The position numbers and the translations under genes are program-made. A stretch of 64,000 nucleotides of DNA from Pedobacter sp. Leaf216 (GTDB taxonomy: Bacteria; Bacteroidota; Bacteroidia; Sphingobacteriales; Sphingobacteriaceae): assembly GCF_001421515.1 (NCBI RefSeq), contig NZ_LMKM01000016.1, forward strand, positions 1 through 64,000, written 5' to 3'. Under the pieces are notes generated by a model. It was not told the origin of the DNA. It was given only the letters and a program-made list of their open reading frames with translations, and did not search any database. Numbering within the stretch: position 1 is the stretch's first letter; each line of letters starts with the position of its first letter. Of this stretch, positions 1 through 38,578 are shown in pieces.

Positions 1-102
1 ACACCAAACGAAGTTATTCTAACAAACCGCCGTATACCGAACGGTACGTACGGTGGTGTGAGGAGACAGCAGGGAAACTAATTCCCTGCTTCTTACTCGA
101 TT
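1..102 (+). mobile_element. 3' end of a group II intron (domains V and VI)
   Basis: Positions 25-58 fold as a 34-nt group II domain V: a 9-bp lower stem (26-34 with 49-57, one G-U), a two-base bulge CG at 47-48, a 4-bp upper stem (35-38 with 43-46) and the loop GAAC. A domain VI-like hairpin follows (stem around 69-77 with 82-90), and the sequence ends in TTACTCGAT near 102, a typical 3' intron end with an unpaired A some eight bases before the junction. The intron-encoded reverse transcriptase would lie upstream, outside the window. The exact 3' splice site (101-103) is uncertain. Confidence 0.75.
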
Positions 103-180: not shown

Positions 181-1815
181 CCGTACTTAGATTGCCAGAT
201 ACGCGTCCTGCTGAATTTATTTCAGCATCTATTGAAACAGAACAACTCAAATTAGAGATCCTGAAACAAGTTCAGGAAGATGATTGCGCTTAGGATTCAG
301 GAATACGGTATTGCCAGATACGCGTCCTGCTGAATTTATTTCAGCATCTATTGTAGCAGAACAAATCAATTTAAAGATCCTGAAACAAGTTCAGGAAGAC
401 GATTGCTCTTAGGATTCAGAAAGACGATTGCTCTAAGGATTCAGGAATACGATTGCTCTAAGGATTCAGGAATACGATTGCTCTTAGGATTCAGAAAGAC
501 GATATTGCCAGATACGTGTCCTGCTTAATTTATTTCAGCATTTATTGTAACAGAATAACTCAATTTAAAGATCCTGAAACAAGTTCAGGAAGACGATTGC
601 TCCTAGGATTCAGGAATACGATTGCGCTTAGGATTCAGAAAGACGATTGCGCTTAGGATTCAGGAATACGATATTGCCAGATACGCGTTCTGCTGAATTT
701 ATTTCAGCATCTATTTACAAAACAACTCAAGTTAAGATCCTGAAACAAGTTCAGGAAGACGATTGCGCTTTGGATTCAGGAAAACGATTGCTCTTAGGAT
801 TCAGGAATACGATTGCTCTTAGGATTCAGGAATACGATATTGCCATGCATGCGTCTTGCTGAATTTATTTCAGCATCTATTTACAAAAACTACTCAAATT
901 AGAGATCCTGAAACAAGTTCAGGAAGACGATTGCTCTTAGGATTCAGGAATACGATATTGCCGGGTTTGCGTCCTGCTGAATTCATTTCAGCATCTATTT
1001 ACAAAAACTACTCAAATTATAGATCCTGAAAAAAGTTCAGGAAGACGATTGCTCCAAGGATTCAGGAATACGATTGCGCTTAGGATTCAGAAAGACGATA
1101 TTGCCAGATATGCGTCCTGCTGAATTTATTTCAGCATCTATTTACAGAAACTACTCAAATTAGAGGTCCTGAAACAAGTTCAGGAAGACGATTGCGCTTA
1201 GGATTCACGAATACGATTGCTCCTAGGATTCAGGAATACGATATTGCCAGATACTCGTCCTGCTGAATTCATTTCAGCATCTATTTACAAAACAACTCAA
1301 GTTAAGATCCTGAAACAAGTTCAGGAAGACGATTGCGCTTTGGATTCAGGAAAACGATTGCTTTTAGGATTCAGGAATTCGATTGCGCTTTGGATTCAGG
1401 AAGACGATATTGCCAGATACGCGTCTTACTGAATTTATTTCAGCAACTATTGTAGCAGAACAACTCAAATTAAAGATCCTGAAACAAGTTCAGGAAGACG
1501 ATTGCTCATAGGATTCAGGAAGACGATTGCTCTTAGGATTCAGGAATACGGTATTGCCAGATACGCGTCCTGCTGAATTCATTTCAGCATCTATTTGCAA
1601 AAACAACTCAAGTTAAAGATCCTGAAACAAGTTCAGGAAGACGATTGCTCTTAGGATTTAGGAAGACGTTTGCTCTTAGTATTCAAGAATACGATATTGC
1701 CAGATACGCGTCCTGCTGAATTTATTTCAGCATCTATTGAAACAGAACAAATCAATTTAAAGATCCTAAAACAAGTTTAGGAATACGATTGCTCTTAGGA
1801 TTCAGGAAGACGATT
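181..1815. repeat. Composite tandem repeat array, 11 major units
   Basis: The motif TTGCCAGATA (with variants) recurs at about 192, 311, 505, 674, 840, 958, 1101, 1244, 1410, 1554 and 1697. Each major unit carries two short perfect inverted repeats, TGCTGAA-n5-TTCAGCA and TCCTGAA-n5-TTCAGGA, followed by one to four copies of a 25-bp minor unit (core GATTGCTCTTAGGATTCAGG). Unit lengths are therefore about 119, 143, 167 or 194 bp, that is 119 plus multiples of 25. No convincing coding sequence was found; short open frames inside it are by-products of the repeats. It lies between the intron end and the gene at 1957. Confidence 0.9.
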
Positions 1816-1956
1816 TTTGAATGCTAAAATCAAAACTGGTTTGCAAGTGATTTCCCTTACTAATCTCCCGCTCCATTTCTACATAATTGTTAAAGCCTGT
1901 TAAATAACAAAATTTAACAATTCATCGCGATACATTCGCATATAAATTAAATTACA

Positions 1957-2787
1957 ATGAATTTTAAAATACTCAATTTAGCTGTTTTTTCTATTATACT
2001 GGGTGGTCTTTCTGTTCGAGCACAAGATGTAGAAGAAAATATCCGGATGGTTAAACCTTTCAAGGCCGATGGCGTATCAAATGAATGGAACGAGCCGCTT
2101 AACCAATACAATGATGCCACTAAACTTGCTTTTGCCCTTGCAAACGATGATAAAAATCTATACATCATTATAGAATCGCTAGACCCACAAACCACTTTTA
2201 GTGTATTAAGGGGCGGAATTACGCTTAACATCAATACTGAAGGCAAGAAAAAGGATGGAATGAAGTTGACTTTTCCTTTAATGGATAGGCCTCCAATGCC
2301 AACAGAAGGAGAAGAACACCATGCGCCTCTATCGCCTGACGGAGCAACACACGATCCTGTAGCGATGAATAAAAGCATTCGAGTTTCGGGATTTAAAAAT
2401 ATACCCGATGGTGAGTTGCCAGCTACAAACCAAGTTGGATTAGAAACTGGAATGAGCATTCATCCCAATAGAGACCTAATTTACGAGTTGAGCATTCCAT
2501 TAGCACAATTACAGGTAGGTTTAGATCTTAAAAAAGCTTTGGTTTATAATATAAAAATTAATGAACCAAATAAATCTGGCTTTAAGAGAGAAGGTAAACC
2601 TGGAGGTGATGGCAATAGCAGAGGGAGATCAGGCGGTAGAGGCGGAATGGGTAGCGGAGGTATGGGCCGTGGCGGCATGGGCGGCGGTGGAAGAATGGGA
2701 GGTGGAGGTCAGCGACCATCGGATGGTGGTGAATCGACAGCAAAAACTTCTGATTTTTGGATAAAGTATAAGTTGGTAAAGGCTTAA
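1957..2787 (+). CDS. Exported protein with CBM9/DOMON-like domain and Gly-rich tail
   Basis: Length 276 aa. Residues 1-22 form a signal peptide ending RA-Q, so export to the periplasm or surface is expected. Residues about 30-205 contain a D-G-x(3)-EW start and a D-x-NLY strand, as seen in carbohydrate-binding family 9-like and DOMON beta-sandwich domains. From about 211 to 255 the chain is almost only Gly, Arg, Met and Ser (GGMG and GRGG repeats), then a last strand (DFWIKYKLVKA) closes the protein. The gene stands alone, downstream of the repeat array and convergent with the polyprenyl synthetase gene. Ligand and function are unknown; the CBM9-like reading is moderate. Confidence 0.75.
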   Translation: MNFKILNLAVFSIILGGLSVRAQDVEENIRMVKPFKADGVSNEWNEPLNQYNDATKLAFALANDDKNLYIIIESLDPQTTFSVLRGGITLNINTEGKKKDGMKLTFPLMDRPPMPTEGEEHHAPLSPDGATHDPVAMNKSIRVSGFKNIPDGELPATNQVGLETGMSIHPNRDLIYELSIPLAQLQVGLDLKKALVYNIKINEPNKSGFKREGKPGGDGNSRGRSGGRGGMGSGGMGRGGMGGGGRMGGGGQRPSDGGESTAKTSDFWIKYKLVKA

Positions 2788-15869: not shown

Positions 15870-15957
15870 TCCTTTTCTTTATGCGTCATTCTGAATTCAT
15901 TTGAGGAACTCTTTTTATTAAGATGCCAAAATAAATTCGGTATGACGATGGGTAAAT

Positions 15958-37247: not shown

Positions 37248-37275
37248 TGTTATCAATTATTTTTTTGGTTTTTAA

Positions 37276-38578
37276 CACGGTCGTCATTCTCGCGCATGCG
37301 GGAATCTTACTGCGATCGTTATTTTTGCTTTATCACATCCGCCACTGTGAAGGCACAAAGCAATCTCATTAGTTATTTTGGTTGGCTTTTAACACGGTCA
37401 TCATTCTCGCGCATGCGGGAATCTTAATGCGATTGTTATTTATGCTTTATCCCATCCATCACTTTGAGGCAAGAATCAATCTCATTAGTTATTTTGGTTG
37501 GTTTATAACACGGTCGTGATTCTCGCGCATGCGGGAATCTTAATGCAGTCGTTATTTTTTGCCCTTCAATACGTCCATCATTATGAGGCACAAAGCAATC
37601 TCATTAGTTATTTTGGTTGGTTTTTAACACGGTCGTCATTCTCGCGCATGCGGTAATCTTAATGTTTTCGCTCCGCTCGGGCTTGCCTCGGTTAGCCACC
37701 GAGGGGCTCTTACTTTTGGCTTGGCCCAAAAGTAACAAAAACCCAAGGCTTGGAACTGATGTCGGATAAATTCGTTAAAGCTTTTTGGTCGTCAGCACAA
37801 GTTCTTACTTTTGGCTTGGCCCAAAAGTAACAAAAACCCAAGGCTTGGAACTGATGTCGGATAAATTCGTTAAAGCTTTTTGGTCGTCAGCACAAGTTCC
37901 GCCGGAGGAGGCGGAAAGTGTGTGCTGCCTCAATGCAGTGATGAAGGAAAAGGTATTGATAAAGCTTTAACGTTTTCTCCTTCCATCATTTCCTAGGCCG
38001 GATAACAGGGAGCAAATAGCAGGGTGCAGATAGCGGGGGTTTAAATAGCATGATGCAGGGAATGCGTTAAATCCGTCATTGCGAAGCTGGGGGAGAGCGA
38101 GCTGAAGCAATCTTTTCAGTTTTAACTTGCGGTCGTCATTCTCGCGTATGCGGGAATCTTAATGCGATTGTTATTTTGCTTTATCACATCCGCCACTGTG
38201 AGGCAAGAATCAATCTCATTAGTTATTTTGGTTGGTTTTTAACACGGTCGTCATTCTCGCGTATGCGGGAATCTTAATGCGATTGTTATTTTGCTTTATC
38301 ACATCCGCCACTGTGAGGCAAAATGTAATCTCATTAGTTATTTTGGTTGGTTTATAACACGGTCGTCATTCTCGCGCATCCGGGAATCTTAATGCGATTG
38401 TTATTTTGCTTTATCACATCCGCCACTGTGAGGCAAGAAACAATCTCAGCAGTTATTTTGGTTGGTTTTTAACACGGTCGTCATTCTCGCTCATGCGGGA
38501 ATCTTAATGCAATCTTTATTTTTTCCCTTTAATACATCCGCCACTGTGAGGCAAGAAGCAATCTTAATGCAATCGCAA
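37276..38578. repeat. Tandem array of 8 units in two blocks, with a 460-bp insert
   Basis: The core CGGTCGTCATTCTCGCGCAT recurs at 37278, 37395, 37511 and 37630 (116-119 bp apart) and at 38130, 38245, 38360 and 38475 (exactly 115 bp apart). The unit includes a near-palindrome ATTCTCGCGCATGCGGGAAT, then GAGGCAAGAATCAATCTC and TTAGTTATTTTGGTTGG. The insert 37670-38125 carries a 95-bp duplication and other GC-rich repeats. No gene seen in 37248-38717. Confidence 0.9.
37708..37897. repeat. Perfect 95-bp tandem duplication
   Basis: 37708-37802 and 37803-37897 are identical as read. The unit contains the hairpin CTTTTGGCTTGGCCCAAAAG and ends in GTCGTCAGCACAAGT. Identity implies recent duplication. 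Confidence 0.9.

What the first reader, a model, noticed from the sequence alone, without database searches (positions are those of the whole stretch)
181..1815. Array whose unit length is quantised as 119 + 25n bp
Eleven major units have spacings 119, 194, 169, 166, 118, 143, 143, 166, 144 and 143 bp, explained by one to four copies of a 25-bp minor unit within a constant core that contains two perfect hairpins. This nested expansion differs from simple satellites and from CRISPR. It could produce structured RNA, bind a protein or be a decayed transposon array.
Basis: seen in the sequence. Interest (0 to 1): 0.65.

Follow-up and report, generated by a model that had tools for sequence, protein, structure and literature searches.

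The report
Array of paired palindromes, self-amplified
The stretch is eleven head-to-tail copies of a paired small palindrome (a known kind of bacterial repeat, a CGTC-tagged REP pair), scattered 287 times through this Pedobacter-group genome; following it up showed that the same palindromes in related bacteria bracket a tiny GIY-YIG nuclease gene, a good candidate for the enzyme that spreads them and that has been missing from the literature.

Summary
Eleven units start at 204-1709 with exactly the stated spacings; each equals a 91-94 bp core plus 25 bp times 1-4. The 'two perfect hairpins' are one element in two orientations: a CGTC-tagged REP (CGTC + 8-bp stem + 5-nt loop + CT). Each unit is thus a head-to-head REP dimer (REPIN/BIME-like), and the 25-bp unit is a half REP plus 13 bp. 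The genome holds 287 copies (reversed control 0), and at least 16 other clusters of four or more, so this is a member of a known kind (Di Nocera 2013), tandemly amplified at this locus and absent from the orthologous site in the relatives sampled. The important result lies beside the finding. CGTC REPs are described as having no dedicated transposase. In Pedobacter and in proteobacterial plasmids a ~97-aa GIY-YIG nuclease gene sits inside the same head-to-head REP pair. In Pedobacter, nuclease clade and REP stem type match without exception (clade A 76/76 CTGAR stems; clade B 62/62 other stems; a sister clade is not flanked). This genome lacks the nuclease, so its array is most likely an orphan grown by local slippage and recombination. 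Mobilisation by the nuclease is inferred, not shown.

The parts
204..1815 (+). Tandem array: 11 units, each a head-to-head CGTC-REP dimer followed by a linker with 1-4 copies of a 25-bp half-REP unit
204..282 (+). Unit 1 dimer (P1 204-230 +, P2 256-282 -); the same layout in dimers 323-401, 517-595, 686-761, 852-929, 970-1047, 1113-1190, 1256-1331, 1422-1500, 1566-1643, 1709-1787
390..489 (-). Longest run of the 25-bp minor unit (4 copies: 390, 415, 440, 465). Read on the minus strand it is CGTCTTCCTGAA (REP tag + 5' arm) plus 13 bp, i.e. half a REP
25..101 (+). 3' end (domains V-VI) of a group II intron; explains the contig end
   Evidence: RF00029, E 3.9e-7
1885..1956 (+). Upstream region of the next gene, conserved in relatives (85-90% in the closest); the array ends before it
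1957..2787 (+). Secreted-protein-like gene downstream; orthologues in relatives have no REP array upstream
15884..15947 (+). Single head-to-head dimer of the same CGTC-REP family
37257..38564 (+). Second tandem region (115-119 bp units) built on another CGTC REP type, CGTCATTCTCGC-GCAT-GCGGGAATCT (resembles the clade-B stem type)

Best explanation
The array is a locally amplified cluster of a non-autonomous, REPIN-like element: a head-to-head heterodimer of CGTC-tagged REPs (G-type stem on the left, C-type stem on the right). Step 1 (shown as a pattern): this REP family is dispersed through the genome as dimers with mostly unique flanks. Step 2 (inferred): dispersal was driven by a ~97-aa GIY-YIG nuclease whose gene, in relatives, sits in the spacer of the same head-to-head pair; it would recognise the CGTC tag and hairpin of single-stranded or cruciform DNA, as TnpA-REP does for GTAG REPs. 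Step 3 (shown by absence): this genome has no such nuclease gene in its assembly, so its REPs are orphans. Step 4 (inferred): at this intergenic site one dimer with its linker was multiplied to 11 copies by unequal exchange or replication slippage at the hairpins. A half REP left in the linker, sharing about 17 bp with the adjacent full REP arm, slipped to 1-4 copies and so quantised the unit length in steps of 25 bp. The array is probably tolerated DNA with at most a mild effect on transcripts passing through it.
For: CGTC-REP identity: tag, stem and loop as in Di Nocera 2013; 287 genomic copies. Covariation at stem pair 7-23, a position not fixed by the search: 109/117 distinct REPs paired (CG 48, GC 47) against a shuffle mean of 55, 0 of 2000 shuffles. 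Context: 28 convergent, 25 unidirectional and 3 divergent sites; convergent enriched p 1e-6. Local amplification: linkers are largely array-specific; units 4 and 8 are 97% identical; no array at the orthologous site of relatives. Half REP in linkers of two other arrays of this genome (L050, L052) and of a genome from another family (L142). A single-contig relative has such an array (L159). Nuclease link: 22 of 26 best Pedobacter GIY-YIG loci have CGTC REPs within 250 bp on both sides, distant GIY-YIG controls 0 of 15; clade/stem match 76/76 and 62/62; 9 of 12 plasmid loci have tagged hairpins on both sides, one of them reaching into the gene; genomes with a clade-A gene or pseudogene carry more REPs (Mann-Whitney p 0.009); none in this genome.
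Against: No movement was observed, and no target-site signature or excision was shown. Clade-A nuclease loci are not independent: at least 14 lie at one orthologous site next to an lnt-like gene. Five other genomes with 60-130 REPs also lack an intact clade-A gene (G001, G004, G008, G009, G010), so copy number and gene presence are only loosely coupled. About half of the wider GIY-YIG hits have no REPs. Slippage versus recombination cannot be separated with one assembly.
Confidence: 0.72

Rival explanations
1. Purely local minisatellite: the array is ordinary slippage of a palindrome-rich intergenic sequence, and the REP family and nuclease have no bearing on it.
For: Linkers are largely locus-specific, units vary in length by whole repeat units, relatives have other repeats at the site.
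Against: The core of every unit is a dispersed family with 287 copies and compensatory stem changes; many other loci were amplified with the same dimer.
Confidence: 0.15
2. The array is a functional RNA or transcript-processing element: transcribed REP hairpins protect or terminate flanking transcripts.
For: REP sites avoid divergent promoters and favour convergent gene ends; long hairpins are predicted.
Against: No Rfam family at its gathering score apart from the intron. The upstream gene is cut off by the contig end. The array is lineage-specific. The same bias is expected if insertions into promoters are removed by selection.
Confidence: 0.1
3. The dimers are spread by TIR transposases as cargo of MITEs, not by a GIY-YIG nuclease.
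For: One relative (G031) has at least 40 near-identical copies (76/81 TIR matches on the two strands) of a ~190-bp MITE with a CGTC-REP dimer in the centre and 5-bp target duplications in the clear cases.
Against: The TIR has no exact match in this genome; dimers here have mostly unique flanks; this does not explain the stem/nuclease match.
Confidence: 0.1
4. A Y1 (RAYT) transposase of this genome mobilises these REPs.
For: Five Y1 transposase genes exist here; RAYTs do this for GTAG REPs.
Against: None of the five is flanked by CGTC REPs; several are flanked by private palindromes. The literature also found no CGTC-RAYT link.
Confidence: 0.05

Closest known systems
CGTC-tagged REP super-family, families CGTC-1 to CGTC-4 (Di Nocera et al. 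2013, PMC3733652)
   Same: CGTC tag, 8-bp stem, 5-nt loop (nearest CGTC-2), head-to-head heterodimers, intergenic, convergent/unidirectional bias
   Different: Tail is CT rather than CCA; first stem pair often lost; clusters are common here although described as rare for CGTC REPs; nested half-REP repeat; a candidate dedicated enzyme is proposed here where that paper found none
REPINs and tandem REPIN clusters of Pseudomonas fluorescens SBW25 (Bertels and Rainey 2011, PMC3116915)
   Same: Inverted REP pair forming one long hairpin, tandem clusters that include flanking DNA, up to 12 REPs per cluster
   Different: Different tag; associated there with RAYT (Y1) transposases; no nested minor unit described in the parts read
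BIME-2 arrays of E. coli (from memory; BIMEs are mentioned in PMC2817692)
   Same: Alternating REP orientations in regular arrays
   Different: GTAG-type REPs, TnpA-REP enzyme, unrelated sequence
dRS3 repeats of Neisseria and RPE-4/RPE-6 of Rickettsia
   Same: Members of the same CGTC super-family according to PMC3733652
   Different: Different stems, hosts and arrangement

Membership tests
CGTC-tagged REP | Unpaired CGTC tag at one end | tested here: met
CGTC-tagged REP | Stem 8-9 bp, loop 4-5 nt | tested here: met
   8-bp stem with 5-nt loop; first pair often mismatched in this genome
CGTC-tagged REP | Short unpaired 3' tail, mostly CCA | tested here: inconclusive
   Tail is present but is CT(A/T) here, not CCA; the paper says 'most of which fit' CCA, so the exact letters are not strictly defining
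CGTC-tagged REP | Mostly head-to-head dimers | tested here: met
   +- pairs are the commonest close neighbours: 68 of 150
CGTC-tagged REP | No associated transposase gene | tested here: inconclusive
   No Y1 association, but a GIY-YIG nuclease association is found in relatives
REPIN (GTAG REP doublet with RAYT) | Two inverted REPs able to form one hairpin | tested here: met
REPIN (GTAG REP doublet with RAYT) | GTAG tag and RAYT flanked by the cognate REP | tested here: not met
   works like a REPIN, is not filed as one
CRISPR array | Identical repeats with unique spacers of even length, cas genes | tested here: not met
   Intervening sequence is itself repeated; cas genes not looked for
TIR transposon / MITE | Terminal inverted repeats and target duplication at the array ends | tested here: not met
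   No TIR seen at the array ends by inspection; 0 exact matches of the G031 TIR in this genome
GIY-YIG nuclease (the proposed enzyme) | GIY-YIG catalytic domain | tested here: met
   PF01541 E 4e-15 (clade A, L185) and 3e-18 (G062)
GIY-YIG nuclease (the proposed enzyme) | Cuts or moves CGTC REPs | not testable with these tools
   needs biochemistry

The most novel reading that the evidence does not exclude
Small GIY-YIG nucleases are the dedicated enzymes of CGTC-tagged REPs: a second, independent REP/enzyme partnership parallel to GTAG REPs and RAYT transposases. The gene-bearing form is a head-to-head REP pair with the nuclease gene as its spacer, the dispersed dimers are its gene-less miniatures, and this window's array is an orphan after loss of the nuclease.
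Probability: 0.6. Interest if true: 0.82.

Novelty: new variant of a known kind. Interest (0 to 1): 0.6.

Why it matters
By itself the array is one more REP cluster with an instructive nested expansion. It matters because it led to a testable answer to an open question. The only broad survey of CGTC REPs found in the library (2013) concluded they have no dedicated transposase. Here, unlike Y1 transposases, one class of small GIY-YIG nucleases sits inside CGTC-REP pairs, in Bacteroidota, alpha- and gammaproteobacteria, and its clades match REP stem types in Pedobacter without exception. If right, a nuclease family better known from introns and DNA repair drives one of the commonest small repeats of bacterial chromosomes, and genomes such as this one show what happens to the repeats after the enzyme is lost.

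Tried and rejected
CRISPR: rejected, the 'spacers' are repeated. Y1/RAYT transposases of this genome as the enzyme: five found, none with CGTC REPs, several with private palindromes. Known structured RNA: nothing at Rfam gathering score apart from the group II intron. MITE as general vehicle: real in G031 but TIR absent here; no autonomous partner found among elements under 3.5 kb or beside single TIRs. Assembly break caused by the array: rejected, the contig ends in a repeated intron. Higher-order periodicity of the array: similarity does not decay with distance, only units 4/8 and 5-7 are close. Solved structure close to the nuclease: none credible by sequence. Own-genome lnt site (home of clade-A nucleases in relatives): not found in the ~1.6 Mb read. 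Papers linking GIY-YIG and REPs: none found in the library; bioRxiv and subscription papers were not searchable.

Full report
1. The observation. Eleven units with spacings 119, 194, 169, 166, 118, 143, 143, 166, 144 and 143 were recovered exactly. Each is a 91-94 bp core plus one to four copies of a 25-bp unit in perfect register. Tandem Repeats Finder sees both periods. The window begins at the first base of a 93-kb contig of a draft genome; the contig break is explained by a group II intron 3' end at 25-101, a second copy of which starts another contig. The longest exact repeat inside the array is 92 bp, so the copy number is plausible but not certified.

2. What the hairpins are. Hairpin 1, CGTCCTGCTGAA-TTTAT-TTCAGCATCT, and the reverse complement of hairpin 2, CGTCTTCCTGAA-CTTGT-TTCAGGATCT, are one element: CGTC tag, 8-bp stem (first pair often lost), 5-nt loop, CT tail. 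The two are placed head to head and pair with each other in predicted folds. The 25-bp unit, read on the minus strand, is the tag and 5' arm of the second element plus 13 bp, that is half a REP. The family has 287 copies in this genome (0 for the reversed pattern). Stem position 7-23, which the search did not fix, covaries strongly (109 of 117 distinct elements paired against 55 expected). Elements avoid divergent intergenic regions and favour convergent ones.

3. Known class. These are CGTC-tagged REPs as described by Di Nocera et al. 2013 (PMC3733652): tag, stem, loop, head-to-head heterodimers and orientation bias all agree. Tandem clusters of REP dimers with flanking DNA are described there and for REPINs in Pseudomonas (PMC3116915). 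The array is therefore not a new kind of thing. What differs: clusters are said to be rare for CGTC REPs, yet 17 clusters of four or more elements, the window array included, were seen in the 1.26 Mb read (chosen around hits, so a biased sample). The nested half-REP repeat is also not described in the parts read. A half REP beside the C-type REP is present, usually once per unit, in two other arrays of this genome (L050, L052) and in an array of a genome from another family (L142), so it is likely an old part of the linker that expanded only here.

4. How it grew. The array is absent at the orthologous site in all Pedobacter relatives read, where other repeats or none are found. Spacers between the paired REPs resemble those of other arrays (84-87% over 45-50 bp), but linkers between dimers are largely specific to this locus. 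Units 4 and 8 are 97% identical and 5-7 form a subgroup. This fits arrival of a dimer, then local tandem amplification by unequal exchange or slippage, with a second, smaller slippage between the full REP arm and the half REP. The arrangement is shown; the mechanism is inferred.

5. What spreads the family. None of the five Y1 transposases of this genome is flanked by CGTC REPs, in line with the 2013 statement that CGTC REPs lack a dedicated transposase. An array in a more distant genome (L142) contained a GIY-YIG nuclease gene, which led to a survey. Of 26 best-scoring Pedobacter GIY-YIG loci with full flanks, 22 have CGTC hairpins within 250 bp on both sides, 20 of them in the head-to-head sense with the gene in place of the spacer; distant GIY-YIG genes give 0 of 15. 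In a tree of 87 proteins the flanked genes fall in a few clades. In Pedobacter two clades are flanked (26 of 32 on both sides) and one is not (0 of 22; Fisher 5e-10, not corrected for relatedness). The stems match the clade: clade A 76 of 76 CTGAR stems, the type of this window's array; clade B 62 of 62 other stems, mainly ATTCCC. The second array of this window (37257-38564) carries a CGTCATTCTCGC stem resembling the clade-B type. Plasmid copies in Sinorhizobium, Novosphingobium, Azospirillum, Sphingobium, Shinella, Rhizobium, Neorhizobium and Aeromonas have CGTC or CCTC hairpins of their own stem on both sides (in Aeromonas the second reaches into the gene; the R. tumorigenes, Photobacterium, Planktothrix and Spirosoma loci do not have them on both sides). 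Sinorhizobium meliloti, N. aromaticivorans and A. lipoferum are among the CGTC-REP species of the 2013 paper. At least 14 clade-A genes share one site next to an lnt-like gene, so they are inherited vertically at a fixed place, as RAYTs are said to be, and are not independent cases. Several are pseudogenes (G004, G011, G020 with stops, G034 split) while REPs persist. Genomes with the gene or its remains carry more REPs (p 0.009). This genome has 205-287 REPs (by stringency) and no such gene.

6. Verdict. The array: real, known kind, unusual nested detail. The nuclease link: strong as an association with clade-specific stems; mobilisation is inferred. No paper in the library connects the two; preprints and subscription papers could not be searched, so priority is uncertain.

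Noticed in passing
L179, L192, L193, L198, L310, L311 (REP - GIY-YIG gene - REP); tree and stem match: A ~97-aa GIY-YIG nuclease gene occupies the spacer of a head-to-head CGTC-REP pair in many Pedobacter species and in proteobacterial plasmids; nuclease clade and REP stem type match without exception in Pedobacter.
   Followed up: yes
L139:918-1109, L146-L155 (genome G031), L160-L164 (G034): A ~190-bp MITE (TIR ACCTGAGTTCGAT, 5-bp TAATA/TTATA target duplications in the clear copies, at least 40 near-identical copies in G031) carries a CGTC-REP dimer in its centre; no autonomous partner was found.
   Followed up: partly
window 37257-38564: Second tandem region with 115-119 bp units built on another CGTC REP type (CGTCATTCTCGC...GCGGGAAT), interrupted by two identical 95-bp repeats at 37708-37899.
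   Followed up: partly
L010, L011, L012 (own genome C33:170 kb, C12:520 kb, C33:139 kb): Y1 (RAYT-like) transposase genes have private palindromes beside them (GTCAGATGTTACCATCTGAC on both sides; CACACGCGGGACGCGTGCG downstream; GACCTCGCAGGTTTTTAAAACCTGCGAGGTC on both sides), apparently separate REP systems in one genome.
   Followed up: no
L013:1153-1707 (own genome C33:87 kb): A Y1-transposase-like gene contains an inverted palindromic pair (GGTCGGGGCTACCCTTGCGGTCGC) inside its coding sequence.
   Followed up: no
L159 and L160: Short foreign inserts lie at about the same point inside a CGTC REP loop, both ending in CTAATAAAA, in two different genomes: a possible target-specific insertion.
   Followed up: no
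window 25-101: Group II intron 3' end directly upstream of the array, at the contig edge; 95 bp of it are identical at the start of contig C35.
   Followed up: partly
L142 ~1349-1648 (G062): A GIY-YIG gene lies inside a tandem CGTC-REP array whose linkers carry a half REP, the same anatomy as the window's array.
   Followed up: yes
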